A stretch of 64,000 nucleotides of DNA from Carya illinoinensis (Eukaryota > Streptophyta > Magnoliopsida > Fagales > Juglandaceae): positions 9,350,001-9,414,000 of the forward strand of contig NC_056760.1 of the NCBI RefSeq assembly GCF_018687715.1. The letters run 5' to 3'. A program made the position numbers and the translations under genes. The notes below the pieces were generated by a model, which saw nothing but the letters and a program-made list of their open reading frames with translations, did not search any database and was not told the DNA's origin. Below are positions 1 to 55,343 of the stretch, piece after piece (the stretch's first letter is position 1; each line of letters starts with the position of its first letter).

Positions 1-214
1 TTTTGGGCACTTGTTAGGATGGCTCTTTCTTATCTATACATAGTAAGGTTTTCTGCACATATTGTGTTTGGGTTGTTCTCAACGTTCAAGCTTATAAAAA
101 CAAAAAAAAAAAACACCAACCCACCTTTTAATATCACATTTTTGTTTTATATATTCTTATCCTCTATAAGGTTTGAGAATTATCTTTCTAAACTTGATTC
201 TTGTACTATGTCAG

Positions 215-1386
215 ATGAGATTCAAAGAAAGGGCAAAACGCAAAAAGTTCACTACTCCGGTGCCATCCGAGCACTCTTCAAGTGAGGATGTCCCATCACT
301 TGAACCCTTGCAATTAGGCGACACTTCTGCCCCTCCTCCATCTCCATCACCATCGGTGCCTGTGCCCACAGAAGCACCTATTGATCGCTTCACCTCCATT
401 GAAGCCGAAAATGCCTATAGAAATACCTTTTCCAAGAGACCCGTCTTGGGTGAGCGGGAGGTAAGCATCCATGACTTTCCTTCGGATGACTTCCAAATTA
501 TCCGCCAAATATTCATTGAAAGAGGTTGGGAGAAGCTCACTCATGCCCTTCCTACACCTTGTGTTGAGGTGGTCCGGGAATTTTATTCAAATATAGCCCA
601 CTTCAATTTAGATGATCATAGCATCATCTCTACTATTCGTGGGATTCAGATTGAGGTATCTCCTGCTATTCTCCGTAATCTATTTACTCTTCCTGAGGTT
701 GAATCCCCTCTATATCCATATAAGGGCATGGGAGCCCCAACCAAGACTGCAATGCGCAATCTATTTGTTGGTGTCACTGGCCCCAAATGGACTGCCAAGA
801 CACACAGACTGCCCCTTCACAATATGCTTCCTCCGTATCGGCTTCTGGCCAAAATTGTCTTGACCAATCTCTGGCCCATTAGTCGTCACACTGAAATTTC
901 TCTAGAAAGAGCTTATTTTATGTATGCTCTTGCTACTGGTGTGTCTATTGATTTTCCACGACATGTCATTGATATTATTCATCGCTCACATGTGGAAAAA
1001 GAGTTAAATCTCCCCTTTGGAAGTCTAATTACAAAATTGGCCATGATTGCAAAAGTGCCCCTTCGAGCGAATGAACCCACCATGAAGCTGCCAGGGCCTA
1101 TTTCTGCCTTAACCGTGGTTAAATCAGCAGCTGTCATCACCAAGAAGCGCCCCCTCACTACTGAGTCAGCATCCTCTCCACCTCTCAACTTCTTGAGCAA
1201 ATCTCCTTGTTATCTCAGAAGATGGATAGCTTCACAGCTAAGTGGGAAGCCAGTCAGTCCAAGTTGGAGCAACAATTGGCTGCAGTACGCTCTGATTGTG
1301 TACAAGCAAATGATCGACTAGTTCAACTGTCCTTGGATGTCCAACACATTATGGCAAGCGTAGCAGATTCTGACGAGGATGTATAG
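215..1386 (+). pseudogene. Plant transposon-domain protein (Transposase_32/PMD-like) with a late frameshift
   Basis: A long ORF is open from 173. The Met at 215, followed by a basic RFKERAKRKK stretch, is the more plausible start. A Pro/Ser-rich linker (about residues 25-65) precedes a globular region containing FTSIEAENAYRN and ISLERAYFMYALATG. This resembles the 'putative plant transposon protein' domain common in retroelement-associated ORFs (family recognised by eye; function not established). The open frame stops at 1321, but from about 1185 another frame encodes a heptad-rich tail (LEQISLLSQKMDSFTAKWEA...) ending at TAG 1384-1386. A one-step frameshift has therefore replaced a coiled-coil C-terminus of about 65 residues. 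It was probably a nucleic-acid-binding or gag-like protein of the surrounding element. Confidence 0.6.
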
Positions 1387-15952: not shown

Positions 15953-18041
15953 TTAATATTGAATGAATACATTACCAGATTCTATTACAAAACTCTCCAC
16001 ATTATCCATGGCCTCTCGAAGATCAATTGGCGCCGACGGATGTCGTAACCAATTCTGAGTACAAATAAGTGCCTCAACTGTTTTCGGAGCGAATGAACTC
16101 CGAAACTTATCAAGTACACGCCCTCCTGTACTAAATGCTGACTCTGAAGCAACAGTGGAAACATGCATGGCTAACAAATCTCGTGCAATCCTTGCAAGTA
16201 TAGGATAATTAACCTCATTCTGTCTCCACCAGATCAACAAATCAAAAGATGAACTGAGTGCCTCACAACCATCTGATAAATATCGATCCACCTCTGTTTT
16301 AGCAGCAGCTGATTCAATCTCATTATCTGGCTCATACCAATCCATATACAATTGTGACTCTTCTTCACTTTCTACTGAGGGTATAGATGTCGAAGCGGGC
16401 ACATGTTCTCGACTACTCGAAGTAGAACCAAATGTAGCATTATACTCATCGTATAAGTCGAATAGTAACTGCCTCACACTAGACACCAAATGTAATCCTC
16501 GAGTCTCATCATAAATTTTTCTCAAGTTGCGGGTTAGAAGGCCTAACTTATTTCGAGGATCAAGCACAACGGCAACCAATAACAACAAGTTCAGCTTATC
16601 CAGTGAACCCCAATATTTATCATATTTCGTTCTCATGCTTATGGCCATGTTCATCGAACAACTATTAGAACTCTGACTCAGCCTAACCAATTCTTTTTGG
16701 AGCATGCAAATCTCCACAAAACTTGTATTTGCTGTGACATGAAGGGACCCAGAAAAGCGACAAGTGGCATCATAGAACATCTTCAAAAATTTCACAAAAA
16801 CTTGCACTGTCTCCCACTCATCAGCTCTAGGAGGCCCTATGTGTCCCTCATTAAAGTAAGATAGAAAATTGTAATTCTCACTCTCCATCTGCCTAAAAGC
16901 CTTTTCAAATTTCTCAGCCGCATCCAACATCATGTAAGTTGAATTCCATCGGGTTTGCACATCAAGACACAACAATTTTTTACAATCAATTTTTTCTTTT
17001 TCTGCACACTTCTTAAACTTGTCTAATCTAGTAGGGGAGGAGCGCACATATCTAACTGCATTTCTAACCATTGTGATGGCGTCATTACACTCCTTCAAAC
17101 CCTCATTCACGCCAAGATTTAAAATGTGAGCACAACATCTCAAGTGCATGTACTTCCCATCCAACACATTCCCCGTCAAAAAATGCTTCAAGTAAGAAAT
17201 TGCAGTATCATTTGAGCTAGCATTATCAACAGTCACAGTAAATATCTTATCAATGCCCCAATCAAGGAGGCACGATTCAATATATTTTCCAATTGTATCC
17301 CCTCGATGATTAGGGATCAAACAAAAATTAATGATTTTTTTTCTTCAACTTCCAATCATTATCAATGAAATGGGCAGTTAGACACATATAATTCAAATTT
17401 TGTATCGATGTCCATGTATCAGTAGTCAATGAAACTCTCATCTTCCCGTATTTAAACAACTTTCTAAGCTTGGCCTTTTCAGATGTAAACAATTTCATAC
17501 AGTCTCTTGCAACTGTAACACGGCATGGCCTTTAAATTTTGGTTCAAGTAACCAAACCAACTTCTTAAATCCTTGTCCTTCAACAATTCTAAATGGCAAT
17601 TCATCAATAATTACCATTTCCGCAATGGCCAACCTCACTGCATCTTCACTATATTTGTGGGTTACAAGATTTCTTACCACGCTACTATCACTCTCTCCAA
17701 CTTCCTCACCCGCCAATGTTTGTTGATATCTATCTAGAGGCTTTATGAGGATTTCTTGGACATGCAGATAAGTGGTTTTTCATAGTTGAAGTCTCATTTC
17801 TCTTTGAGTGGCAAGCATAAATCTTGCCACAATAGTTACACTTAGCCTTCGGATCATCTACGGGACAACCCTCAACTTTCGTAAAATGATTCCAAACAAC
17901 TGACGGGTCCTTCCCCTTCCGTTTCCTAGGAAGTGGACAAGTACTACTAGGGGCACTTGAAGGTTTTGGTGTTTGGGTCTTTCCCAAATTTACGGTTTGT
18001 TCATCATTATCAAGATCAATTGGAGTTGATGAGGAATCCAT
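15953..18041 (-). pseudogene. hAT transposase (BED zinc finger, RICESLEEPER-like), three frameshifts
   Basis: It starts at ATG 18041 (MDSSSTPIDLDND) and ends at 15953. A BED-type zinc finger occupies about residues 45-98 (VVWNHFTKV, CNYCGKIY, HLSAC). The central hAT RNase-H-like fold and the C-terminal dimerisation domain (LLAMHVSTVASESAFS, near 16140) are well preserved; the last 455 codons (17320-15953) form one open frame. Frame breaks occur near 17735 (after NPHK), near 17525 (after EPKFK) and in the A-run near 17335-17341. Neighbouring frames continue the family sequence through each break, so the gene was complete until recently. A domesticated protein is unlikely given the breaks. Confidence 0.88.
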
Positions 18042-21883: not shown

Positions 21884-21901
21884 GAAATCATCAAATTATC
21901 A
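21884..21901. repeat. LINE-B target-site duplication, 5' copy
   Basis: The 18-bp sequence GAAATCATCAAATTATCA is identical to the copy at 27560-27577. Single copies at the paralogous positions near 40472 and 41769 are the unoccupied sites. Confidence 0.95.
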
Positions 21902-21987
21902 AAGGTCCTCTCCTTCCAGGGTGAGGTTTGGTCTCTCTAGGAAGAGTAGTGTCCCTTAAGCTAGCTTGGCTGGTTTGAAGTGGAGCC

Positions 21988-23421
21988 ATGGATGCAGATC
22001 TTGCAAGACAATGGGAGGATTTCAGCCTAACTGAGAAGGAGAAAGGTGTGGTAATCCCTCCATCCAAAGCAACACAGAAAATCATGCAACAAGGCAAGGT
22101 TTGCCTACTGGCCATGATAGTAGCAGAAAGACCAGTCAACCGAGAGGCTTTCAAAACAACTATGTCCAAAGTATGGAAATGCAAGAGCTGGATTCAGTTT
22201 TCAGAAGTAGGAACCAATAAGTTCCTGATAGAGTTTAACCATAAGCAAGACCTGCAACAGGTTATCAGTGGCAGACCATGGTCTTTCGACAGATGGTTAG
22301 TATGTCTACAGCCTTTTGAAGGCCACAGGTCGATTAATGAAGTCCTATTCCATACAGAGGTGTTTTGGGTACAAGTTTTTAACATGCCATTTGCTAGCAT
22401 GACACAGGAGGTAGGGACTCAGATTGCTGAACACCTTGGGAGAGTCTTAACTGTCCAAACAGATGAGAGGGGAATAGGTTGGGGGAAATGCATGAGGATG
22501 AGGGTGGAAGTTGACATCTCCAAGGCACTCCAAAGGGGGATCTTCCTGACCTTTGAAGGGAAAAAAACCTGGGTTTTTTTCAAGTATGAACGACTTCCCA
22601 ACTTTTGTTTCAAGTGTGGTGTTATCAAACATGACCAGAAGGGGTGCAATGAGGCATCCACAAGCAAGGATAAGCTGCAGTATGGTTCATGGATGCGTGC
22701 ACCAGCTGTTAATGAGCATGAGGTAACAAGGAAGAGGTATGGCAATGAAACCTGCCACCAACCTGAGGAAGAGCAACCACGGATGGAGGAGGGGAAGGTC
22801 AGGGATGAAGGGCAAAACTGTCAAGAGAAACCAACCAAGGAAAACCAACACTCCAAGTTACCTGATGTTGACAAAGCAGAAACAAAAACAGAAAATGCAG
22901 ACATGCTTTCCAAATTTCAGACTGTAGAGTCCTTTCAATTTCCTATTCAGGAAACTGGGAGGGTTCCACTTATGGACATACCAGAAAGTAACTTTAATGT
23001 TGTAAGGAACGGTCTGTTACAACCCTCTGACAACACTATGGCCTCAGTCCTCAATGCAGACACAGCAAGGCACTCAAGGGACCAAGTGGGCTCCAAGGGC
23101 CTCGAGAGAAATGATGATCTGAGGGCACAGGCCTCATCTCTAGCCCATTTTGTCTCAAATCAGGTCCAGGTCTTGGAGACTATGCAGAAAAGGGCTACCT
23201 GGAAAAGGAAGGCAAGGGATAAACATATGGAATGTCAACTAGCTGGCCCGGGGGAGGACAAAGAAAACAGGCCTAAAGGGATTAAAAGAGAGGGGCCTCT
23301 CTGGATGACAGAAACAGAACACAAAGCACTCAAGAAACCAAAAATTGAGCAGGTATGCATCTCACTAGCTCATAACATAACTGAGGTGGAGGCTGACTTT
23401 CAGCCCCACCCAATTAAATGA
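21988..23421 (+). CDS. LINE-B ORF1: gag-like nucleic-acid-binding protein (477 aa)
   Basis: It starts at ATG 21988 in the favourable context GCCATGG. Residues about 20-165 match the DUF4283 domain of plant LINE ORF1 proteins (MQQGKVCLLAMIVAERPVN; ISGRPWSFDRW). Around residue 206 is a canonical CCHC zinc knuckle CFKCGVIKHDQKGC, with all four ligands present. The C-terminal half is hydrophilic, rich in K/E/Q and low-complexity. The protein should bind LINE RNA to form the ribonucleoprotein needed for retrotransposition. Its TGA overlaps the ORF2 ATG (ATGA, 23418-23421), suggesting coupled re-initiation. Confidence 0.92.
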   Translation: MDADLARQWEDFSLTEKEKGVVIPPSKATQKIMQQGKVCLLAMIVAERPVNREAFKTTMSKVWKCKSWIQFSEVGTNKFLIEFNHKQDLQQVISGRPWSFDRWLVCLQPFEGHRSINEVLFHTEVFWVQVFNMPFASMTQEVGTQIAEHLGRVLTVQTDERGIGWGKCMRMRVEVDISKALQRGIFLTFEGKKTWVFFKYERLPNFCFKCGVIKHDQKGCNEASTSKDKLQYGSWMRAPAVNEHEVTRKRYGNETCHQPEEEQPRMEEGKVRDEGQNCQEKPTKENQHSKLPDVDKAETKTENADMLSKFQTVESFQFPIQETGRVPLMDIPESNFNVVRNGLLQPSDNTMASVLNADTARHSRDQVGSKGLERNDDLRAQASSLAHFVSNQVQVLETMQKRATWKRKARDKHMECQLAGPGEDKENRPKGIKREGPLWMTETEHKALKKPKIEQVCISLAHNITEVEADFQPHPIK

Positions 23422-26400
23422 GTTGTTTAAGCTGGAACTGCCGAGGGCTTGGGAACCCTCGGACAGTGAATAATTTGTGCCTTATGGTGCAAAATAAGTC
23501 CCCATCTTTTGTTTTCTTAATGGAAACAAAATGTACAAGACCAAAAATGGAATCAATTAAGAAACTGCTGAGATATGAACACAGTTTTATAGTAAACTCA
23601 ATAGGGGCCAGTGGAGGCCTTGCTTTCTTCTGGAAAGAGGGAATAGAGGCAGAAATTTTATCCTACACTCAGTCCCACATCTCCCTCCTTGTTAAGGAGG
23701 TGAAGGAAAATGTGACATGGCATCTAACTGGTTTCTATGGAAACCCAGTCACATCAAAAAGACATGAGAGTTGGCAAATCCTACAAGCCCTGACACCTAC
23801 TACAGCTGCTGGTTGGCTGTGTGTGGGTGACTTTAATGAGATCCTGAATTATGGAGAAAAAAGGGGAGGGCATCTGAGACCTTATAACCAAATGGAACTC
23901 TTTCGAGAAGCTGTGTACAAGAGTGGCCTCAGTGACATGGGCTTCTCAGGAAACAAATTCACATGGTCAAATGGCAGAACAGGAGAGGCTTTCACCAAGG
24001 AAAGACTTGATAGAGCTTTCTGTAATGCAGCATGGTCAGACCTCTTCAATGACTCAAGGGTACACACACTCCCTGCCACGAACTCAGACCATAGTCCCAT
24101 TTGGGTTACTTTTGATAAATTGCAGACCATGGACAACAGGAAACTCAAACCTTTCAGGTTTGAAGCTAGGTGGTTACTACATGAAGAGTGTGCTAAGAAG
24201 GTAGAGGAAGCTTGGCATGCACCCAGGTTAAATGGAAGCATCATGCAACGTATGTCAGAGGGTCTGAACTCTTGTAAACAAAGACTACAAGTGTGGAGCA
24301 AGCAGGTTTTTGGCCATCAAAACAGAATGATTAAAGAACAGATGGCACTTCTCTCCTCTTTGCAAGAGAGGAACACCGGGCAACTAAATGGGGAGATTAA
24401 ACAAGTACAAAGAAAGGTGGATGGGATCCTAAATGAAGAAAACCTCAAATGGAAGCAAAGGGCCAAACAAAAATGGTTGGTGGAGGGAGATAGAAATACA
24501 AAATTCTTCCACCAAACTGCCTCTAACAGGAAGAAAACCAACACCATTAAAAAATTGGTGGATTGCAGTGGACAAATTATAACCTCAAAGAGGGGGATCA
24601 GTACCCTACTCAATGATCATTTTTCTGAACTCTTTTCCTCATCAAATCCCAACAACCCCACAGAATGCCTCTCTTCCTTGCAGACTCGTGTGACTGACTT
24701 CCATAATGAGTTGCTCAACAAACCATATTGCAAGCAAGAGGTTGAAGAAGCCCTTTTCCATATGAATGGCCTCAGCTCTCCAGGACCAGATGGTTTTCCT
24801 GCAATTTTCTACCAAAAGAACTGGTCAATCGTGGGTCCTCAAGTGTGCAAAGCTGTTCTGGATGTTCTGAACTCAAAATGCAGTATGGAAGCAATTAACA
24901 GCACCTACATAGCACTCATCCCAAAGAAGAAGGTACCTACTAAGGTGACTGAATTCAGACCTATATCCCTTTGCAATGTTACTTACAAGCTTATCTCTAA
25001 AGTTATTGCAAACAGGCTGAAAAAAGTGTTGCCTAGTATAATATCCCCCTCTCAATCTGCTTTTGTTCCTAATAGATTAATTTCTGACAACATAATTGTG
25101 GCTTTTGAGACTTTGCATACAATGAAGTGTAAAATGGCAGGCAAAGAAGGGTACATGGCTCTTAAATTAGATATGAGCAAAGCCTATGATAGGGTGGAAT
25201 GGTGCTTCCTAAGAACTGTCCTCTACAAGCTAGGCTTCAGCAAAACATGGGTAGAGTTAGTGATGAACTGTATTGAAACTGTATCATATGCCATCCTTGT
25301 AAATGGAGAACCTCAAGCTACCTTTCAACCCTCTAGAGGTATTAGACAAGGAGACCCCTTGTCACCATACCTATTTATACTGTGTGCAGAAGCCTTGAGC
25401 AATTTGATTCAAAAGGCTGAGGAAGGAAGGCTCATACATGGGGTCCCAGTTGCAAGAAGTCAAATGAGAATCTCACACCTGTTTTTTGCAGACGACAGTC
25501 TCCTGTTTTGTAAGGCAAATGCAGAGGAGTGGAGTAGGTTGATTGGTCTACTAAGGGTTTATGAAATGGCATCGGGCCAAAGACTAAACCTGGACAAGAC
25601 ATCAATCATTTTCAGTAAGAACACAGCAAGACCAACCCAAGACTACATTCTCTCTATTGCAGGGATGAGATCAGCCATGGCATATGAAAGGTATCTTGGC
25701 CTGCCCTCTGTAGTGGGCCGTAGCAAGCTTAAGTCTTTCAATAGCATCTTGGACAGTATAAGAACAAGATTGAGTAACCAGAGAGTCAAGGCACTATCTC
25801 AGGCAGGAAAGGAAGTTTACCTAAAAGCAGTTATACAAGCACTTCCAACCTACACAATGAGTGTTTTCAAGCTCCCCATCACTCTACTACAGTCTATTAA
25901 TAAGGCCATTCAGAGGTTTTGGTGGGGCCAGCAAGACAAGGAACGCAAGATACACTGGATTTCTCTGGAAAAAATGGGGCAAGCAAAGTCAGCAGGAGGC
26001 ATGGGATTTAGGGACCTTGAAGACTTCAACAAGGCAATGCTTTCTAAGCAATGCTGGCGCCTAATTCAAGATCCTAACTCACTGGCCTCAAAAGTCCTCA
26101 AGGCCAAGTATTTCCCAACAGCAACCTTCTATACAGCTAAGGTAGGATCAAAGCCATCATTTGTGTGGAGAAGTCTTCTGGCAGCTAGGCATGTTGTAGA
26201 GGCAGGTTCAGGGTGGAGAGTAGGGACAGGAACCAACATTAAGATTTGGGAAGACAAATGGTTAGGCCATCCCAAACAAAACAAGCTCAAAAGCCCAGTT
26301 AAGATCCTAGAGGCCAAGGCTACAGTAGCAGAATTAATTGACTCAGCAACAAAAAGATGGAAGACAGACCTAGTGCAAGAAATTTTTGAGGAACAAGAAG

Positions 26401-27521
26401 CCAAATTGATCCTGCAAACCCCTATTAGTTCTAGAGAATCAAAGGATAAAATAATATGGCAAGGGACTAAGGAAGGTTTATTCTCTGTCAGGAGTGCGTA
26501 TCATTTGGAGAAAACAAGGGTATTGCAAGATGCAGGTCAAGCCTCAACAAGCAACAGATTCCAAGCAGTTTGGAACACCATTTGGCAGACCCATGTCACC
26601 CCGGCAGACAAAGTTTTCCTATGGAGAGCTTGCCATGAAGCTCTTCCTACTCAATCCAATCTCTTCAAAAGGAAAATAGTGAGGGACCCTCTATGCCCCA
26701 TATGCCAAAGAGAGGAAGAAACTGTGATCCATGCTCTGTGGAGCTGTGAAGCAGCAGTGGATGTGTGGGGCCAATGCTCCAAGAAACTCCAGAAGTGCAC
26801 TTCCTCTCAAGCTCCCATGCTGCTGTTTTTTGAAACTGTGTCTAAGGCCTTTTCTGAAACTGAACTGCAAGAATTTATTCTAATTGCTAGGAAGCTGTGG
26901 TGGAGAAGGAACTCTTTCATTTTCAATAAGGAATTCTCTCACCCTAGTGTAATTGTTAGAGAAACCAGGATCATGATGGAAATGATGGCTGAAAGGGAGG
27001 AGACTCACCAGAGTAGCAGGAGAGACAGTCAAGTATGTACCTCAGAAGATGCATGGAATGCTCCCCCATCGACATGGTTCAAAGCTAATTGGGATGGGGC
27101 TGTGGATAAGGCTAAGGGCCAAATTGGAATAGGTGTCATCATCAGGGACTGCAATGGCCAAGTAATTGCTACCATGCGTGATAAGAAGCAGATGTTCCCT
27201 GACCCTTTGCTAGCAGAATCGTATGGAGCACTAGCAGCTGCTCAACTAGCACTGGATTTAGGACTACAAAGAATTGTACTAGAGGGGGACTCATTGCAAG
27301 TGACCAAGACCTTACAAGAAGAGAGAGAAGCTTGGAGCTGTGCTAGCATGATCATGTCTGAAACTAGAACTTGTCTTAAATATTTTGCTAAGTGGGATGT
27401 TTCTCATGTTAGGAGAAATGGCAACAAAATTGCCCACTTACTTGCAAAAAATGCTTTGACCATTTCTGAACTTATTGTAACCATGGAGGACTCTCCTTCT
27501 TGGATTTATCCACTACTATAA
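23418..27521 (+). CDS. LINE-B ORF2: endonuclease / reverse transcriptase / RNase H (1367 aa)
   Basis: A single uninterrupted frame. The N-terminal apurinic-type endonuclease (about residues 1-230) has LSWNCRGLG, GDFNEIL and the catalytic NSDHSPIW. The RT domain (about 480-760) has FRPISLCNVTYKLISK, LDMSKAYDRVEW, RQGDPLSPYLF and intact FADD near residue 690. A zf-RVT region follows (about 1080-1170, including CPICQREEETVIHALWSC). A C-terminal RNase H (about 1220-1350) starts at ANWDGAV and includes EGDSLQVT. No catalytic motif looks damaged. It would nick genomic DNA and copy its own RNA by target-primed reverse transcription in the nucleus. Confidence 0.95.
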   Translation: MSCLSWNCRGLGNPRTVNNLCLMVQNKSPSFVFLMETKCTRPKMESIKKLLRYEHSFIVNSIGASGGLAFFWKEGIEAEILSYTQSHISLLVKEVKENVTWHLTGFYGNPVTSKRHESWQILQALTPTTAAGWLCVGDFNEILNYGEKRGGHLRPYNQMELFREAVYKSGLSDMGFSGNKFTWSNGRTGEAFTKERLDRAFCNAAWSDLFNDSRVHTLPATNSDHSPIWVTFDKLQTMDNRKLKPFRFEARWLLHEECAKKVEEAWHAPRLNGSIMQRMSEGLNSCKQRLQVWSKQVFGHQNRMIKEQMALLSSLQERNTGQLNGEIKQVQRKVDGILNEENLKWKQRAKQKWLVEGDRNTKFFHQTASNRKKTNTIKKLVDCSGQIITSKRGISTLLNDHFSELFSSSNPNNPTECLSSLQTRVTDFHNELLNKPYCKQEVEEALFHMNGLSSPGPDGFPAIFYQKNWSIVGPQVCKAVLDVLNSKCSMEAINSTYIALIPKKKVPTKVTEFRPISLCNVTYKLISKVIANRLKKVLPSIISPSQSAFVPNRLISDNIIVAFETLHTMKCKMAGKEGYMALKLDMSKAYDRVEWCFLRTVLYKLGFSKTWVELVMNCIETVSYAILVNGEPQATFQPSRGIRQGDPLSPYLFILCAEALSNLIQKAEEGRLIHGVPVARSQMRISHLFFADDSLLFCKANAEEWSRLIGLLRVYEMASGQRLNLDKTSIIFSKNTARPTQDYILSIAGMRSAMAYERYLGLPSVVGRSKLKSFNSILDSIRTRLSNQRVKALSQAGKEVYLKAVIQALPTYTMSVFKLPITLLQSINKAIQRFWWGQQDKERKIHWISLEKMGQAKSAGGMGFRDLEDFNKAMLSKQCWRLIQDPNSLASKVLKAKYFPTATFYTAKVGSKPSFVWRSLLAARHVVEAGSGWRVGTGTNIKIWEDKWLGHPKQNKLKSPVKILEAKATVAELIDSATKRWKTDLVQEIFEEQEAKLILQTPISSRESKDKIIWQGTKEGLFSVRSAYHLEKTRVLQDAGQASTSNRFQAVWNTIWQTHVTPADKVFLWRACHEALPTQSNLFKRKIVRDPLCPICQREEETVIHALWSCEAAVDVWGQCSKKLQKCTSSQAPMLLFFETVSKAFSETELQEFILIARKLWWRRNSFIFNKEFSHPSVIVRETRIMMEMMAEREETHQSSRRDSQVCTSEDAWNAPPSTWFKANWDGAVDKAKGQIGIGVIIRDCNGQVIATMRDKKQMFPDPLLAESYGALAAAQLALDLGLQRIVLEGDSLQVTKTLQEEREAWSCASMIMSETRTCLKYFAKWDVSHVRRNGNKIAHLLAKNALTISELIVTMEDSPSWIYPLL

Positions 27522-27559
27522 TGAAATGGCATAAGGGTATTCCCCTTTTCAAAAAAAAA

Positions 27560-27577
27560 GAAATCATCAAATTATCA
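27560..27577. repeat. LINE-B target-site duplication, 3' copy
   Basis: An 18-bp direct repeat directly after the A9 tail, identical to 21884-21901. Confidence 0.95.
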
Positions 27578-33398: not shown

Positions 33399-38039
<4,641 letters not shown>

Positions 38040-38109
38040 AGAATGAGTACTTTGGCCAAAAGTTAGTGGAGAAGGAAGGTAATTAACCTGACATCTGATC
38101 AAGCACAAC

Positions 38110-40990
38110 TTGTGTCGGTCAGAATACTCTCTTCAAGACATACATGTCAGCCTTTGACAACACGATTTACCCTCAAACCTGTATGATACATTAGATAGAA
38201 ACTTCCGCCCAAAAAGATTTTGGTCCGACTCTTTCTGATAGAACCGTTGAGCATTCCTCTGAAACTTCCCCGCTGGACGTTGATACTGAGTCGAAATATT
38301 TAGGACTGCTTCTCCGAATGGTGACGATGGGGACAAGTTTTCCCTTTCAAAAAATAGTGTTCTAAGCTTAAAATATTTGTAGTTTACTGCGATTGTTTGA
38401 AGCGTGCACGTATAAATTAACATCATTAATTAGATTCCTTTCTTTACTATAGTAACCGATAGTCGATACGTGCTTTCTAAGGACGAGCTAAACAAGCAGC
38501 TCATTGGAAAAATTCTAAACAATAGTCTATATATTATACACTATACCTTTTTTTTTTTTTTTTAATTTTACTTTTTACTAAATATTTAATATATAGATAA
38601 TGAGTAGAAAAATTCAATTAATTTAAAAAAAAATTTAAAAATAAAAAAATATATAATATGTGATGTGTGAAAATAATAAATATTAAAAAACTTAATTGAA
38701 AGTTTGACAATTCTACTTGAAGATAAAAGATTTGACGAAAACGATGACTCATTCATTACGAATGAATGAAATGGCAATATTTCTTTGATCTTTTTAGCCA
38801 AGATGAATGGCAAAGACTCTAATGCACCTTGTTGACCAACCTGGATCACATTATTTTTTTCCCCAAAACCAGCCCAACGAAGCATGAAGGAACAGAATGA
38901 GTACTAAGCCAAGAGTTATTATTTCTAAATTATTATAATCAGTACGTACTCCACACGGAATATTAGGACTTTCTTATTGGTCATCATTTGGGCAATTCCA
39001 AAGGATTAAATTTCAAAGTTATTAATTAATTAATACTACCAAACCACTAGCTAGCACCCTTCTGACATATTTTTCTTAGATCATACATATCAAAATGCAA
39101 GAGGATTATATTTTAATTATTCATTAAACTAGTAATGAAGTAGCTGTCATGACTGATGCCCATAGTGTTAAACAAAACAATGCTATTCAATAAATCATGA
39201 TTAGTTGAATTCTTTCTTGTCTTATTTGTTATATTTTTCTTAGATCATACATATCAAATCAATAAACCTGATCTTCTACTTTGTTATATTTGTCAATTCT
39301 TTTTTTTATTGATTTTCTTACTGATTTGCGCTTCCTGATTTTAGAAACAGTAATACTATATATCACATTTTTTTATATGATTTTTTTAAAATAATTATTT
39401 AATAATGATAAATGTGTTACATCTTACTTAATAGGATAAAAATATGATAATAGTATGGTGTATAGAATTTTCCTTTTAAAAAACGATATGCATCCGATAA
39501 AAGTTGCTAATTCTTATTTTATTTTATTTTATATATTTGTTTACTTAATTATCAAGAAATTATTTTTAAATGAGTTTTGTGATTTTTTTAATATTTAAAA
39601 AGATTTAAAAAATAATTAAAAAATGCAAAATAAAAATATATATTTTATACTTTTCGATAGAAATTCTCAGATCACTCTGGCCTTGGCCCTAGTAGGATCC
39701 TAATTTTAGACAGAATAGCGGCTCTCTATTCTAAATTCTTACATATCAGATTTTATTTTCTTCTAACCTCAGCTATTTTCTCATTTCCTTATATTCTCAT
39801 TTCTTCAAATCTTAGAGGTTTGGAAGTAAGATAAGATATAAGATTTTTATCTCATCTTATTTTTTAATTATAATTTTTTAAAATTCTCATTTAAAATATA
39901 ATAAACAATTAAACTTTTTTAAATTTTAAAATAATAATAATACTAAAAAATAATATTTTAAACTTTTATTTAAAATTAAAAATTCTCTTCTCACTATCCA
40001 AACTTACCCAAAGCTCTCAACGTATCTCTCTTCTCAAGCTCTTTGCTCTGTGAAGAGCTCTCTCTCTCCTCGAGAATTGCCTAAGGTGAGGGTGGAAACA
40101 GAACTCAACTAGGGGTGTTAAAAAAAAATCAGAAAATCAGAAAATCGTTCTAAACCGGTCAAACCGATCCGATCTGGAACCGATTTTCATAATGGAAAAA
40201 CTGGCCAGAGTCGGTCTAAAATCTGTTCTAGGCTTTTTAGAACCGGACCGAGTCAATTCCATTTAATATGTATTTTAAATTATTTTTTTAAATATTATAT
40301 ATAATATTTTTTATTATGTACTAATAGTATTACTATATACTAACTACTAGTACTAATATTTAAATATATTAATATATATATAAAGTATACTATATAAATA
40401 TCATAGTAGAATATATATTCATTTATATTTAGTAATATATGAATGACAGAGTGCATTCCTCATTATTAGAAATCATCAAATTATCAGATTATTTCGACCA
40501 TAAAAAAGAGAACTCTAAACGGAAGACAATGATGTATGCATTGTTTTTCATATATATATATATATATATATATAAGCTCAAGAAAAAATATCTGATTGCT
40601 TAGCTTAATTGCACGTCAGATCACGTCAAATTAATTGACAAGCGTAAGACTCAAATAACATGAAAACCCATTAGCTTTAGTACTGGCAGATTTTTCTTTT
40701 TATTTCAGATTTTTTTTTTTCAATTTTTGTAGCAGTTATATTTATAGGTTTGTAGCAGATGTTTTTAGTAAAGCAGGTTTTTTTTAGTAAAGCAAATTCT
40801 TATAACAGTAACAGATTTTGGAATAAAAGTATAAAACAGATTTTTTTTCTTTTTTATAAATTTGTATTTTATTAAAACAAAAAAGCTAGATTGAACTAGA
40901 CTGGAATTAGTAAAACTAAACGTTTCAGTTTAGAAAGGTAATCGATATGTAATTAGTTTTTGAAAATGCAAACTGATAGATACCGATTTA
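38110..40990. repeat. CRK upstream-region duplicate (unit B), non-coding
   Basis: 38230-38500 matches 19997-20270, and 38690-39220 matches 20460-21010, 41160-41640 and 61263-61770. The promoter side of CRK-B lies at the left end; no convincing TATA box was seen. An AT-rich MITE-like repeat is at 39823-40012. At 40110 a hAT-like left end TAGGGGTGTTA is followed by ACCGG-type repeats. The unoccupied LINE-B site is near 40472. Confidence 0.75.
40110..40265. mobile_element. hAT-like left end with ACCGG/CGGTC repeats
   Basis: TAGGGGTGTTA is followed by AAACCGGTC, AACCGATCCGATC, AGTCGGTC and GAACCGGACCG motifs, like other hAT-type termini in the window. A related, more decayed copy lies at 21500-21640 in unit A. 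The other end was not paired with confidence. Confidence 0.45.
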
Positions 40991-43539
40991 GTTCTATATA
41001 TTATATATTATATTTTAAAAAAAAAATTTACTAAATATTTAGTATATAGATAATGAGTAGAAAAATTTAATTAATTTAAAAAAAATTAAAAAATTAAAAA
41101 AATTAAAAAATTAAAAAAATATATAATATATAATGTGTAAAAATAATAAGTACAAACCTAAATTAAAAGTTTCAAATCACGTGACCGAGTTTACTTGTTT
41201 GACAGTTCTACTAGAAGATAAAAGATTAGACGAAAACGATGACTCATTCATTAAGAATGAATGAGATGGCAATATTTCTTTGTTCTTTTTAGCAGAGATG
41301 AATGGCAAAGACTGGCATGCACCTTGTGAACAACCTGGATCACATGTATATTTTTTTCCCCAAAACCAGCCTAACGAAGCATTAAGGAACAGCATGAGTA
41401 CTAAGCCAAGAGGTATTATTAATTCTAAATTATTATAATGAGTACGTAGTCCACACGGAACATTAGGACTTTCTTATTGGTCATCATTCTGGGCAATTCC
41501 AATGGATTAAATTTCAAAGTCATTAATTAATTAATACTACCAAACCACTAGCTAGCACCCTTCTGACATATTTTTCTTAGATCATACATATCAAAATGCA
41601 AGAGGATTATAATTTAATCATTCATGTCGATGACTCGTTGGTGATAAAGAAAACAATGCTCTTCAATGAACCATAAATTAAATTATATTTACATAGATAA
41701 TACTAAATTATCTATGTAAATATAATATATTTAGTAATATATGTATGACAGTGCATTACTCATTACTAGAAATCATCAAATTATCAGATTATTTAGACCA
41801 TAAAAAAGAGAACTCTAAACAGAAGACAATGATGTATGCATTGTTTTTCATATATATATATATATAAAAGCTAAAGAAAAAATATCTGATTGCTTAGCTT
41901 AATTGCACGATCTAATTAATACATGTAGATTAAGTATAATTGGCTCCAATTATTCCTACAGTTAGCTAGCTACCTTACTGTTTTAATTCCACCAGGCCAA
42001 CGCATAATCAAGATAATAGACCAGTTGTAAAATCAGACAAAGAAAACTCAAAAGAGCTTAATTCAAACGAGAAATAAATCATCTTAAAACAAATTTCCAA
42101 CAGGAAATCACTCCTTAATAAAACGAAAAGATGTCAAACACATGCACATGCAATGAATTATACATATATACCACAAGAAAAATCAAGCGAATATATATAC
42201 GCGTGTTTCCACAACAGATGTTAAATTAATTGATAAGCATAAGACTCAAATAACATGAAAACCCACTAGCTCCTATACTGGCTAGATTTTTCTTTTTATT
42301 TCAGATTTTTATTTTTCAGTTTTTGTAGTAGTTATATTTATAGGCTTGTAGCAGTTTTTTTTTTTTTTATTTTATTTTTGAGTAAAACAGATTTTTAGAA
42401 GCAATTTTTAATAAAGCATATTTCAGTAAATCAGATTTTTTTTAGTAAGGCCTGTTTTTTTAAGTAAAGCAGATTTTTATAATAGTAACAGATTTTGGAA
42501 TAAAAGTATAAAACATATTTTTTAAAAGCTGTTTTTTTTAATAAATAGATTTTTTTTTCTACAAATTTACATTTGATTAAAACTGAAAAGCCGGACCGGA
42601 ACCTATAAAATTAGACGTACCGGTTTAGGGAGGTAATCGGTGCGTAATCCATTTTTAAAAATGCAAAACCAGTATATATTGATTCAGTCCTAAATTTAAT
42701 CTAAAACCTGACCAGACTGAACCTGTTAGACTCCTAAAAACAACTGGAGGGGTAGTGCAAAATTAACTGATGGAGCGAACTTATCTTCTGACCGGTTTTG
42801 CCACATCAATAGGTGTGCGGTTTCAAACCGGACTAGTAATATAATTTTCTTTTTAGATAGCCAATGTGGTTTCTCAGCCAGCCATTTTAGTTAACTGTCG
42901 CTTTCATATTTTCTATCATTTGAAATTTCTCAAAAACAATTAGGTTTTATAATTCAAAATTCTCATCTCAAAAACAAAATTCTCATGTCATCATTATAAC
43001 TTTCTCAAATTTTTATACAAAATATAATAAACAATTCAACTTTTTCAAATCCAAATTTAATTTTCTTAAATTCTAAAATAATAATAATATTAAAATATAA
43101 TATTTTATATTTTCGTATAAGACCAAAAATTCTCATCCCAATTTTCAAATCCCAATTAGTATATGATCCCCGGTTCTAATTAGGACATAGCTAGGATACT
43201 TTTCGTGTGTATTTTGTCTTCGATCGGAGTTACTTATTTACTGAAATGGACAGTTAGAAATGGATATTTAGAGAATCTTATTACGCAACTCGAGATGAAT
43301 ATAAAATCATAAGTTTTTAAGAATAGCCATAGGGCATGGCCTGGCAAATGAAACATCTGCCACATTTACATTGAAGGGTGGGTCAATTACAAGAAGCATT
43401 ACTATTATTATGATCCCTAACTATATAAATATTAAATAATATTATACATTTTAAGTGTTTTTTTATTGCTGTGCACTACGTCCACATGCACAAGACAAGG
43501 CATTAATGAAGTACAAATCCACTTGTAGCGCTTCATCGA
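40991..43539. repeat. CRK upstream/downstream duplicate between CRK-B and CRK-C, non-coding
   Basis: 41160-41640 repeats the upstream module again. 41760-42110 matches 27555-27858 plus 28095 onward. 42210-42300 repeats 40630-40690. The hAT-like right end is near 42735. 42750-43460 matches 62380-62457 plus 63562-63975. An AT-rich MITE-like copy lies at about 42950-43165. The stretch therefore consists of CRK array spacer in two partial copies. Confidence 0.75.
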
Positions 43540-47101
<3,562 letters not shown>

Positions 47102-47177
47102 ATTTTCCTGAGTACTTCAACTCTGATATATAGTGGCTGAATCTCTCTCTATATTGTGGCTGAAGGTGCTTTTGCTT

Positions 47178-48736: not shown

Positions 48737-49246
48737 TTAATAAATCAAGAACATATTTGAACTGTTCTGGTGGGAAATATTCTGCTTGTTATCTAAGCCG
48801 ATGTTTCCTGTGAGATTCACTTGGCCAAAGAAATTTTGGTTCGAGTAGCGCAGCTGGCATAGCTCTTCCCATACAACGGCTTCCCTTGTGTATGGACAGA
48901 GCTTCAAAATGTCTTTTGTAGCAGATGCTATGCACTTCCCGCAGTTTTCATTTGTGACATAGTCGAGGCACATGTGTACCCCGTAAACTCTATCTGTATC
49001 ATTTCTTGTGGAGGTATTATAGAATTTGGAAGAAGAAGTACTTAAGGATAAAGAGAGGAGTTCGTCAAGGTTATTTTTAAATGGACTGCCGTCTATATAA
49101 TCAGCACTTGTGTTAGGACAAAAGCTATAAGGAGGGTCGGCATAGGCCAGCTCCCATAGGAGAAGATGGGAAGATGGAAGCTGGCCTAGAAAAGCAGAAA
49201 ACATAGGCAATCGAATGAATCTTGGACTGATATGGGGACGATTCAT
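48737..49246 (-). pseudogene. CRK-D: 5' fragment of a CRK gene (signal peptide plus one Gnk2 domain)
   Basis: It starts at ATG 49246 (MNRPHISPRFIRLPMF). A signal peptide runs to about residue 36 (AYA|DPP). The first Gnk2 domain is complete, with CLDYVTNENCGKC (C-x8-C-x2-C). It is very like CRK-C exon 1 through NISHQ. There a one-base deletion relative to CRK-C shifts the frame (about 48768), and homology ends about 20 bp later at 48750. The second Gnk2 domain, TM and kinase are absent. If transcribed, it would give a secreted single-Gnk2 protein of 169 residues. More likely it is a duplication-truncated relic. Confidence 0.85.
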
Positions 49247-50473: not shown

Positions 50474-50613
50474 CGTTATCAGCACGAAAGTTCTGACGAT
50501 TTTGAAGCTAGTAGTCCCCTACTTCAAGTAAGTCTTTCAATATATTTTTGTAGTTTTCAAAATGAATATGAAATATTAAACATACTTATGTTCCTGATTT
50601 ATATATGTAGAAA

Positions 50614-51663
50614 ATGTCAAATCTTACAAAATTGGAATTCGTTGCTCTTGACATTTCTGGAAAAAATTATTTATCTTGGATCCTTGATGCTGAGATCCAT
50701 CTGGATGCAATGAACCTGAGAGATACAATTAAAGAAGGAAATCAAGGGTCCCTGCAGGACCGTGCTAAGGCAATGATTTTTCTTCGGCACCATCTTTATG
50801 AAGAATTAAAAACTGAGTATCTAACGGTGAAAGATCCACTTATTTTGTGGAATGATTTAAGGGAGAGATATGAACACCAGAAAACTGTAATCCTCCCAAA
50901 AGCTCGTCATGATTGGATGCACCTGAGGTTGCAAGACTTCAAGAGTGTTAGTGAGTATAACTCTGCACTTTTTAAAATTAGCTCGCTATTGAAATTATGT
51001 GGTGAAAAAGTCACTGATGATGACTTGTTAGAGAAGACATATACTACTTTTCATGCCTCGAATGTGCTCTTGCAGCAGCAGTATCGAGAGCGAAAGTTCA
51101 AGAAATATTCTGAACTTATATCTTGTCTTCTATTAGCTGAGCAAAATAATGAGGTTTTATTAAGGAATCACCAGTCACGTCCTACTGGTTCTATATCATT
51201 CCCTGAAATGAATGGTACTAGATTTACATCATTCCCAGAAGCGAATGGTGCATCTTTTCAAAGGAAAAGGAGGCGTGGATGTGGTAAGAAAAACTATAGA
51301 AGTGGAGGTCCTAGAAGTGACCACACTAAAAGGGAAAATAATAGATATACACCGTACCGCCAGAAGTGGTTCAACTCAGAGAAGGGCAAAGGTCCTCAAA
51401 ATAAATTTGTAAAGAAATATGAAGATGAATGCCATAGATGTGGTATGACTGGAAATTGGTCTCATACCTGTCGTACAGCTAAGCACTTGGTTGACTTATA
51501 CCAATCTTCCATAAAAGAAAAAACAAAGAAATTTGAAACAAATTTTGCTGAACCATCATATGCTTTAGATTCTATAGATGGAGAAGATATTACAAGCCTT
51601 GATGTTTCTGATTTCTTTGAGGATTCTAGTGGTAGAGTTAATCATGGAAGTGTTCTTTTTTAA
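50614..51663 (+). CDS. Copia-2 gag (349 aa), zinc knuckle altered
   Basis: The ORF begins MSNLTKLEFVALDISG; the N-terminal DUF4219/UBN2-type gag fold spans about residues 1-190 (NYLSWILDAEIHL, LLLAEQNNEVLLRNH). A basic linker (KRRRGCGKKNYRSGG) precedes a CCHC knuckle near residue 273 reading CHRCGMTGNWSHTC. The ligand His expected after GMTG is Asn, so zinc binding is probably impaired. Gag packages the element RNA into virus-like particles. The stop at 51661 lies before pol, which is in another frame. Confidence 0.88.
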   Translation: MSNLTKLEFVALDISGKNYLSWILDAEIHLDAMNLRDTIKEGNQGSLQDRAKAMIFLRHHLYEELKTEYLTVKDPLILWNDLRERYEHQKTVILPKARHDWMHLRLQDFKSVSEYNSALFKISSLLKLCGEKVTDDDLLEKTYTTFHASNVLLQQQYRERKFKKYSELISCLLLAEQNNEVLLRNHQSRPTGSISFPEMNGTRFTSFPEANGASFQRKRRRGCGKKNYRSGGPRSDHTKRENNRYTPYRQKWFNSEKGKGPQNKFVKKYEDECHRCGMTGNWSHTCRTAKHLVDLYQSSIKEKTKKFETNFAEPSYALDSIDGEDITSLDVSDFFEDSSGRVNHGSVLF

Positions 51664-51782
51664 TTAATGTATTTCCTTCATATTATTGTAAAATATTTTT
51701 ATTCTGCAATGTTTTGTAGTAATGAAAGTTTTATATATTTTGTAGAATCATAAGTCTTATTGATGAACTTTCTATATCCGAG

Positions 51783-54700
51783 ATGAATAATAAAGATGTA
51801 TATCTGGCTGACAGTGCTACAACTCACACAATTCTTAAGGATAAAAAATATTTTCAAAATCTAACATTGAGTAAAGCCTATGTTCATACCATTTCTGGTT
51901 CATCGAATCTAATTGAAGGCTCCGGAAGAGCTTATATTGTGTTGCCTAATGGCACCAAATTTTGTATTTATGATGCTCTATTTTTTTCACAATCCAAAAG
52001 AAATTTATTGAATTTTAAAGATATACGTCGTAATGGTTGTCATATTGAAACCATTAACGAAGACAAGAAAGAGCATCTTCTCATTACTAAAATAATTTCG
52101 AGTCAGAAGCTCGTATTAGAAAAACTGTCTGCCCTCTCATCTGGATTGTATTATACAAAAATGAGAACAATTGAATCACATGTTGTAATGCACCAGAAGT
52201 GCATTGATCCCAAAATATTTATGACTTGGCATGATCGCCTTGGACATCCGGGATCAATAATGATGAGACGAATAATTGATAATTCGTATGGGCATCCCCT
52301 AAAGAATCAGAAGATTATCTTACCCAATGAATATCCATGCTCTGCAGGTTCTCAAGGTAAATTGATTATCAAACCATCTATCTCAAAGGTTGTTTTTGAA
52401 TCTTCATCTTTTTTATAAAGGATTCATGGAGATATATGTGGGCCTATTCAACCATCAAGTGGACCGTTCAGATATTTTATGGTTTTAATTGATGCATCAA
52501 GTCGATGGTCACATGTTTGTCTACTTTCCACTAGAAATGCTGCATTTGCTAAACTTCTTGCACAAATAATTAAGCTACGAGCACAATTCCCTGACTATCC
52601 AATTAAAACTATTCGATTGGATAATGCAGGAGAATTTACATCTCAAGCTTTTGATAATTATTGCATGTCAATAGGAATAGATGTTGAACATCCAGTTGCC
52701 CACACACACACTCAAAATGGTTTAGCTGAATCATTGATTAAAAGGCTTCAGCTAATCGCTAGACCTTTACTCATGAAATCAAATCTTCCTATTTCTGCTT
52801 GGGGACATGCTATAATTCATGCAGCATCATTAATTCGAGTTAGACTATCAGCATATCACAAATATTCACCATTACAGCTTGCATTTGGTCAGCAACCAAA
52901 TATTTCTCATCTTCGTATTTTTGGATGTACTGTATATGTTCCAATTGCACCTCCACAACGTACAAAGATGGGCCCTCAACGTAGACTTGGGATATATGTT
53001 GGGTTTGATTCTCCATCTATTATCAGATACCTTGAGCCTCTTACAGGGGATATGTTTAAGGCACGTTTTGAGGATTGTCATTTTGACGAATCCATTTTTC
53101 TAATATTGGGTAATGAAAAGTCGGTGCCTGAAACATGACAGGAAATTACTTGGGAAAATAAAGCTCTTTCCCAATTTGATCCTCGTACAAAATAATGTAA
53201 TCTAGAGGTTCAAAAGATTATTCATTTGCAAAGTGTTGCAAACCAATTACCGGATGTATTTACTGACACTAAAGGTGTGGTAAAATCATATATTCCTGTT
53301 GTTAATGTTCTAACAAGGATTGCAGTCCCTGAAGGACAAGTTGCCAAAATAGCAATAGGCGAATCTAAGATACGCCTGGAGTGTGGACGGCCTATTGGTG
53401 CTAATGACAAAATTCCTCGGAAGAAGAAAATACAAAATGAATTTGGTACTCCTGAAGAGTTCATACCAACACAGGCCATAAGAGTAATTGATGCTCCTGA
53501 AAAGAGTAAATCTCCTGAGAAAGAACCTCCTGAAGAGGTATTTCATGAAATGTCTTCCCTTGAAGAGGGACAGGTACCTGAAAATAACGAGATCTCGATA
53601 CATTTCATGAGTACAGGAGAAATTTTGAATAGAAATAAAACTGTTGTCGACAATATATTTTCATATAAAATGGCTCTTGACATTACCAGAATTAATGAAG
53701 AAATTGAGCCAAGAACTGTCGAAAAATGTCGACGTAGAGATGACTGGCCAAAATGGAAATCAGCTATTGAAGCTGAATTAAACTCGCTAGCAAAGCGAGA
53801 GGTCTTTGGACCAATTATACAAACACCAAAGGGTGTAATGCCCGTTGGATATAAATGGGTATTTATACGTAAGCGTAATGAAAGAAATGAAATTGTGCAA
53901 TATAAAGCACGACTTGTTGCACAAGGTTTCCTGCAGAAACTGGGGATTGATTATGAGGAAACATACTCTCTTGTTATGGATGCAATCACATTCAGATATT
54001 TGATAAGTCTGGTAGTTATAAAAAGATTGAATATGCAATTGATGGATGTGGTCACTGCATATTTATATAGATCATTAGATCATGACATATATATGAAAAT
54101 CCCTGAAGGATATAAAATGCCTGAAGCTTCTAATCTGAGTACATCCAGAAGTATATATTCTATTAAACTTCAAAGATCTTTATATGGGTTAAAGCAATCC
54201 GGACGCATGTGGTATAAATTCCTTAGCGAATATCTATTGAAAGAAGGATTTAAGAATAATCCAATATGCCCATGTGTTTTTATTAAGAAATCAGACTCTG
54301 GATTTGTTATTATTGCGGTTTATGTTGATAATCTAAATCTTGTTGGAACTCCTGAAGAGATCAGAAGAACCGCTACATATTTAAAGAATGAATTTGAAAT
54401 GAAGGATCTTGGCAAAACGAAATTTTGTCTCGACCTGCAGCTCGAGCATTTGCCAAATGGAATTCTCATTCATCAGTCAAATTATACAGAGAAAGTCTTG
54501 AAACACTTTTACATGGACAAAACTCATCCCCTGAGTACTCCAATGGTTGTTCGATCACTTGATGTGCAGAAAGATCCATTTCGTCCTTGTGAAGACAATG
54601 AAGAAATTCTTGGTTCTGAAATACCTTATCTCATTGCAATTGGAGCCCTGATGTATCTTGCAAATTGCACTCGGCCTGATATTGCATTTTCAGTTAATTT

Positions 54701-55343
54701 ACTTTCAAGATATAGTTCCGCATCAACTCGAAGACATTGGAATGGCATTAAACATATCCTTCGATACCTTCGAGGTACGGTTGATATGAGATTATTTTAT
54801 CAACATGGTTCAAGTCCACAATTAGTTGGATATGCAGATGCAGGTTATCTTTCAGATCCACATAGAGGTAGATCTCAAACTGGATATGTATTTACTTATG
54901 GAAATTCTGCCATATCATGGAGATCTATCAAACAAACACTATCTGCTACATCTTCAAATCACTCAGAGATCATTGCAATTCATGAAGCAAGTCGAGAATG
55001 TATTTGGGTAAGATCAATGATCCAACATATTCAAGAAAAGTGTGGCCTTCCATTGATTAATGATAGTCCAACAACTTTATACGAAGATAATGCTGCTTGT
55101 ATTACTCAAATTAGAGGAGGATATATGAAAGGTGATAGAACCAAACATATTTCACCTAAATTCTTTTATACTCATGAACTTCAAGAGAAAGGTGAAATTA
55201 AAATCAAGCAGATACGATCAAGTGATAATCTGGCAGATTTATTCACAAAAGCATTACCAATTGCAAAATTTAAGAAGATTGTGCAGAACATTGGAATGTG
55301 GAGACTTGAAGACCTTTTATCATGCACTTTTCAGGGGGAGTAA
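51783..55343 (+). pseudogene. Copia-2 pol (protease, integrase, RT, RNase H), three in-frame stops
   Basis: One frame runs the whole way, broken only by TAA 52416, TGA 53136 and TAA 53193. Domains in order: protease edge with ADSATTHTIL (51810); GAG-pre-integrase with HDRLGHPGS (52226); integrase core (RLDNAGEF, 52615; GLAESLIKR, 52725); RT (GYKWVFIRKRN, 53850; SLYGLKQSGRMWY, 54178; YVDN at 54318); RNase H (YADAGYLSDPH, 54830; DNLADLFTKALP, 55222). The second catalytic Asp of the RT motif is Asn, which alone would abolish activity. There is no frameshift, so decay is by point mutation. Confidence 0.92.

What the first reader, a model, noticed from the sequence alone, without database searches (positions are those of the whole stretch)
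21902..27559. A LINE with both ORFs intact and a perfect 18-bp TSD: possibly still active
ORF1 (477 aa, canonical CCHC) and ORF2 (1367 aa, with SDH, FADD and RNase H motifs) are fully open and overlap by ATGA. The TSD is identical on both sides. Two paralogous spacers (near 40472 and 41769) preserve the unoccupied target. Among so many dead elements this one stands out as recent.
Basis: partly seen in the sequence, partly recalled or inferred. Interest (0 to 1): 0.75.

Follow-up and report, generated by a model that had tools for sequence, protein, structure and literature searches.

The report
Intact, recently copied pecan LINE retrotransposon
This is a complete, very young copy of an ordinary plant "copy-and-paste" jumping gene (an L1-type LINE with an RNase H domain) in what looks like the pecan genome, with one almost identical intact sister copy on another chromosome, so the family jumped recently and may still be able to.

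Summary
At 21902-27559 lies a full-length L1-clade LINE: ORF1 477 aa (DUF4283, CCHC knuckle), ORF2 1367 aa (EN, RT, zf-RVT, RNase H), ATGA overlap, A9 tail, identical 18-bp TSDs; the uninterrupted target survives in two paralogous spacers (40469, 41769). New: the genome (674.4 Mb, inferred pecan 'Pawnee') holds a sister copy on C10 with 3 differences in 5658 bp, both ORFs open, unrelated flanks and another TSD, so the two are independent insertions. In the ten other loci fetched no copy has both ORFs intact. Substitutions on the lineage leading to the intact pair show purifying selection (N/S 8/15 and 11/29; neutral about 2.4-3.0); two side branches show 24/20 and 41/26 plus stops. So the lineage retrotransposed recently. 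Present activity and polymorphism could not be tested. It is not unique: 10 of the 34 ORF2 protein matches scored lack stops. Side observation: 14 of 18 copies with secure TSDs carry 8-32 copy-specific bases between TSD and conserved 5' start; the window copy has 3. A new member of a known kind (plant Ta11-type L1 with RNase H); interest is modest.

The parts
21884..21901 (+). 5' target-site duplication (18 bp)
   Evidence: exact 18-mer repeated at 27560; score 19 vs control maximum 9
21902..21987 (+). short 5' UTR; conserved family start (R)GTCCTCTCC with R at 21904, so 3 bases (AAG) lie between TSD and GTCC
   Evidence: alignment of 9 copies; junction table
21988..23421 (+). ORF1, 477 aa
   Evidence: DUF4283 + zf-CCHC_4
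22144..22506 (+). ORF1 DUF4283 domain
   Evidence: residues 53-173
22606..22647 (+). ORF1 CX2CX4HX4C zinc knuckle
23418..27521 (+). ORF2, 1367 aa, overlapping ORF1 by ATGA
23427..24050 (+). ORF2 APE-type endonuclease (WNCRG, METK, GDFNE, RLDR, SDH)
   Evidence: Exo_endo_phos 2.7e-12; aligned to human L1 ORF2p 8sxt; motifs
24918..25613 (+). ORF2 reverse transcriptase (FADD)
   Evidence: RVT_1 3e-33; L1 ORF2p structures E about 1e-46
26481..26768 (+). ORF2 zf-RVT cysteine region, upstream of RNase H
27087..27455 (+). ORF2 C-terminal RNase H (RVT_3)
   Evidence: RVT_3 5.1e-23; RNase H1 entry 4e19 E 0.0019
27522..27559 (+). 3' UTR and A9 tail (27551-27559)
   Evidence: sequence
27560..27577 (+). 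3' target-site duplication (18 bp)
40469..40486 (+). paralogous unoccupied target 1
   Evidence: exact 18-mer; alignment unbroken across it
41769..41786 (+). paralogous unoccupied target 2
   Evidence: exact 18-mer; alignment unbroken across it

Best explanation
A full-length, coding-competent L1-clade LINE of the plant RNase H-bearing (Ta11-type) group that inserted very recently by target-primed reverse transcription. Inferred cycle: the bicistronic RNA starts at (R)GTCCTCTCC; ORF1 protein binds it; ORF2 is made by stop/restart at ATGA; the endonuclease nicks the target at the TSD; the poly(A) end primes; RT copies the RNA; RNase H helps to remove it; host end-joining closes the 5' side. Shown here: anatomy, TSD, empty paralogous sites, an intact near-identical sister copy at an unrelated site, and selection on the mobile lineage. 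Inferred: every biochemical step. Not shown: transcription or movement today.
For: Both ORFs open with all expected domains. Exact TSDs plus tail. Empty sites. Sister copy C10:36205870-36211527(-): 3 differences in 5658, ORFs 477/1367 aa, TSD AAAGTAAAGAAGGCTAC; its 1.7-1.9 kb flanks give no match to the window copy's flanks, so an independent insertion. Against seven other copies, one change is private to the window copy; of two adjacent changes in the C10 copy, T->A is private and A->G is shared with the distant copy L019. Stem branches N/S 8/15 and 11/29 with no stops, against a neutral 2.4-3.0; side branches 24/20 with 1 stop and 41/26 with 5; pairwise dN/dS against seven copies 0.09-0.24. 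Age from 3 differences: about 38-129 thousand years, 95% Poisson spans together about 8-376 thousand, for recalled rates of 7e-9 and 2.06e-9 per site per year.
Against: Only two near-identical copies appear in the 3' and 5' searches of the assembled haplotype (40 scored candidates each), so no large current burst. The three differences between the intact copies make two amino-acid differences (residues 116 H/R and 993 Q/E), so full function of either protein is not assured. The side branches are also below the neutral N/S, presumably because part of each predates the copy's death. C-to-T decay at methylated sites was not modelled. No RNA, methylation or population data. Rates are recalled, not measured in this tree.
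Confidence: 0.93

Rival explanations
1. Recently inserted but no longer mobile: the lineage is young, yet now silenced or impaired; the open ORFs reflect lack of time to decay. This rivals 'still active', not the recency.
For: Only two near-identical copies seen; the differences between them change two amino acids; the other close copies are broken.
Against: No inactivating change in either copy; neither changed residue (116, 993) lies in the catalytic motifs listed.
Confidence: 0.45
2. The sister copy is a segmental or assembly duplicate, so there is no evidence of a recent jump beyond the window copy itself.
For: None found.
Against: No match between the flanks, a different TSD and a 28-nt 5' extra stretch at C10.
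Confidence: 0.02
3. An old element preserved by host selection (domesticated).
For: Open ORFs over 5.6 kb.
Against: Perfect TSDs and tail, a 99.95% sister copy, and selection along the transposing lineage while side copies decay; UTRs and tail intact.
Confidence: 0.02

Closest known systems
Plant Ta11-type L1 LINEs with archaeal-like RNase H (described in PMC5348765, passages seen)
   Same: ORF2 with a cysteine motif upstream of a C-terminal RNase H, on an L1-type EN-RT.
   Different: No departure seen, but placement here rests on domain order, not on a tree.
Celine LINE of poplar (PMC11288735, abstract and passages seen)
   Same: ORF1 with DUF4283, overlapping ORFs, TSDs (average 15 bp), recent amplification with a minority of intact copies (14 of 58).
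   Different: Celine is centromeric and abundant, with a 635-bp 5' UTR and a 189-bp 3' UTR; 'RNase H' occurs 0 times in its text. Its authors found no two identical full-length copies; here a 3-difference pair exists. The window element has an 86-bp 5' UTR and few close copies.
Human LINE-1 (L1 clade)
   Same: ORF2 aligns to L1 ORF2p over residues 3-885. TSD and poly(A) of L1 are recalled.
   Different: C-terminal RNase H and overlapping ORFs here; a different kind of ORF1 and a much longer 5' UTR in human L1 (recalled, not tested).

Membership tests
L1-clade non-LTR retrotransposon (LINE) | ORF2 with APE-type endonuclease and L1-like RT | tested here: met
   Exo_endo_phos, RVT_1; the named L1 ORF2p structures are among the top solved-structure relatives, well above R2 proteins
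L1-clade non-LTR retrotransposon (LINE) | 3' poly(A) and TSD from target-primed insertion, no long terminal repeats | tested here: met
   the element matches nothing else in the window and only itself end to end
Plant Ta11-type L1 with RNase H | ORF1 with DUF4283 and CCHC knuckle | tested here: met
   (criterion: general knowledge, plus PMC11288735 for DUF4283 in plant LINEs)
Plant Ta11-type L1 with RNase H | cysteine motif upstream of a C-terminal RNase H in ORF2 | tested here: met
   zf-RVT 1022-1117, RVT_3 1224-1346; criterion from PMC5348765
Plant Ta11-type L1 with RNase H | RT and RNase H cluster with Ta11/aRNH in a tree | not tested
   no tree with reference Ta11 sequences was built; 4e19 match only E 0.0019
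Currently active element | transcripts, or new or polymorphic insertions | not testable with these tools
   one haplotype, no RNA; the tool reports no relatives of this genome

The most novel reading that the evidence does not exclude
Full-length copies of this plant L1 lineage are joined to the target through a short stretch of new DNA made at each insertion: 14 of 18 copies with secure TSDs have 8-32 copy-specific bases between TSD and conserved start. These are not inherited between copies 97-99% alike, and in the two cases searched genome-wide they were found nowhere else. This would point to a filler-making 5' joining step (host end-joining such as polymerase theta, or RT adding bases or jumping templates) as the usual route in this lineage.
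Probability: 0.3. Interest if true: 0.45.

Novelty: new member of a known kind. Interest (0 to 1): 0.33.

Why it matters
Plant LINEs shown to have moved recently are few, as far as I recall. An intact pair with distinct TSDs gives two concrete sites to genotype and a defined element whose transcripts can be looked for. The copy-specific 5' stretches, if confirmed, would show how the poorly understood second half of LINE insertion ends in plants.

Tried and rejected
Self-cleaving ribozyme or other known RNA at the 5' end: Rfam gave only 3 matches, all below their gathering scores, and the 5' UTR folds no better than shuffles (z 0.07).

5' stretches copied from the source's upstream flank: rejected as the general rule. 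Four copies 97-99.9% identical (L009, L010, L011, L012) end, just before GTCC, in ATCAAAG, AGCAAAG, GGATTTG and AATCTCG: all share the last G, and L009/L010 share CAAAG, of which CA belongs to the TSD in L009. An RNA that began upstream would carry these bases along. The L010 (24 nt, up to 2 mismatches) and L051 (25 nt, up to 3) stretches match only themselves in the assembly. A source on the other haplotype cannot be excluded.

5' stretches templated locally: a longest-match test of 13 of the 14 stretches (L020 left out; flanks for 7 of them, element for all 13, both strands, 54 tests by my count) gave three nominal hits at p 0.03, 0.035 and 0.005, the last a 12-base match of L054's stretch to the element's reverse strand; not convincing after correction, but against a purely untemplated reading. 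Genome-wide checks for L057, L054 and L019 did not complete.

An earlier hand tally of 16 of 21 (notebook) was replaced by 14 of 18. There 28 five-prime ends were read, 26 with a fetched 3' end (L066, L067 had none). Kept: 18 whose TSD score exceeds 12, the highest score reached against other copies' 3' ends. Dropped: L058 (score 14, but a low-complexity repeat) and seven with 12 or less (L053, L055, L060, L063, L064, L065, L069). Not in the table: L014 (lacks the first ~10 bases), L018 and L070 (conserved start not found). The start of L020 was set by hand. The four short ones are L009, L056, L059, L061.

Papers: searches were answered (one found none); 19, 21, 67 and the look-up 52 were turned back for term format. 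By title, none of the listings was about 5' filler in plant LINEs. PMC2666801 (passages) reports extra 5' nucleotides in about 40% of zebrafish ZfL2-2 copies, so extra bases as such are known.

Full report
What is there. The window carries a complete LINE on the + strand at 21902-27559. ORF1 is 477 aa and ORF2 1367 aa, overlapping by ATGA. ORF1 has DUF4283 and a CCHC_4 knuckle; ORF2 has an APE-type endonuclease, RT, zf-RVT and a C-terminal RNase H-like domain. By sequence ORF2 aligns to human L1 ORF2p over residues 3-885. The endonuclease motifs (WNCRG, METK, GDFNE, SDH), RT FADD and RNase H D/E/D stretches are in place. Motif roles are recalled; the domain order that marks the 'Ta11 L1' group comes from passages of PMC5348765.

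Insertion marks. The 18-bp TSD is exact, the tail is A9, and the same 18-mer stands uninterrupted at 40469 and 41769 in duplicated spacers. The joined flanks align through both. Against 3' flanks of other fetched copies the 5' flank scores at most 9, against 19 for its own.

Host. G000 has 674,387,116 bp in 17 contigs. PMC8257795 (passages) gives pecan 'Pawnee' as 674.27 Mb in 16 scaffolds with scaffold N50 44.7 Mb; the window's contig is 44,705,000 bp. An ORF1 homologue on a contig of 44,211,509 bp, the length of G000:C7, is named Carya illinoinensis by its source. The species is thus well supported, the cultivar inferred.

Copies. ORF2 DNA against the genome listed 40 matches, a lower bound (38 of 3137 first-look candidates scored); 8 are at 87% or more. 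One, on C10, differs from the window element at 3 of 5658 positions, has both ORFs open, its own TSD and flanks without a match to the window's. The 3' and 5' searches (40 rows each) list no third copy above 99%, except that the first 699 bp of the C12 copy are 99% identical. In the 12 loci L009-L020 only the window copy (L009) and the C10 copy (L010) have both ORFs intact; L014, L015 and L018 hold incomplete copies. Of 34 scored ORF2 protein matches (29,770 first-look candidates) 10 lack stops, the other eight being 61-69% identical relatives whose ORF1 was not looked at. So other LINE lineages with open ORF2 coexist in this genome.

Age and selection. The pair's K2P distance is 0.0005; the next copies lie at 0.014, 0.029 and 0.058. 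With recalled rates the pair coalesces within roughly 10^4 to 4x10^5 years. One change is private to the window copy; the two adjacent changes lie in the C10 copy, one of them shared with the distant copy L019. They make two amino-acid differences. On the two stem branches N/S is 8/15 and 11/29, against a neutral expectation of 2.4-3.0, while side branches L011 and L012 show 24/20 and 41/26 plus 6 stops. The side branches are also below the neutral figure, as expected if part of each was still functional. A low N/S on the stems means the lineage had to work to be copied; this is stronger evidence of recent function than the open frames alone.

5' junctions. Between the 5' TSD and the conserved start (R)GTCCTCTCC, 14 of 18 copies with secure TSDs hold 8-32 bases that differ in every copy; four, the window included, hold 2-5. 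Close relatives do not share them, and the two tested stretches occur once in the assembly. I read them as filler made at insertion; polymerase theta or template jumping are guesses. Extra 5' nucleotides are known for another LINE (PMC2666801, passages), so their size and frequency, not their existence, would be the news. Whether this is in print for plants was checked only by searches.

Verdict. Observation confirmed; interpretation supported as 'recent and coding-competent'. 'Still active' remains open. A new member of a known kind.

Noticed in passing
5' junctions of full-length copies: L010, L011, L012, L013, L016, L017, L019, L020, L051, L052, L054, L057, L062, L068: 8-32 copy-specific bases lie between the 5' TSD and the conserved element start; not inherited between close copies.
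   Followed up: partly
G000 genome, ORF2 protein search: Eight further stop-free LINE ORF2s (61-69% identical) on C14 (2), C6 (2), C3, C2, C16 and C1 suggest several coding-competent LINE lineages; their ORF1s were not examined.
   Followed up: no
[quoted passage not shown]
   Followed up: no
window 37194-38129(-), 46244-47113(-), 48737-49246(-): Stress-antifung (DUF26) gene pieces, a tandem cluster; the LINE's target spacer is part of a repeated stretch with copies near 38-43 kb.
   Followed up: partly
window 50611-55340(+): Copia-type LTR retrotransposon domains spread over several separate open stretches.
   Followed up: no
window 15953-17341(-) and 170-1318(+): hAT transposase C-terminal part and a Transposase_32 open stretch.
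   Followed up: no
window 21905-21987: The 5' UTR is more alike than the ORFs in distant copies: 87% vs 75/78% (L017), 80% vs 63/72% (L019), 95% vs 86/87% (L016), as a compact internal promoter might be; no significant fold.
   Followed up: partly
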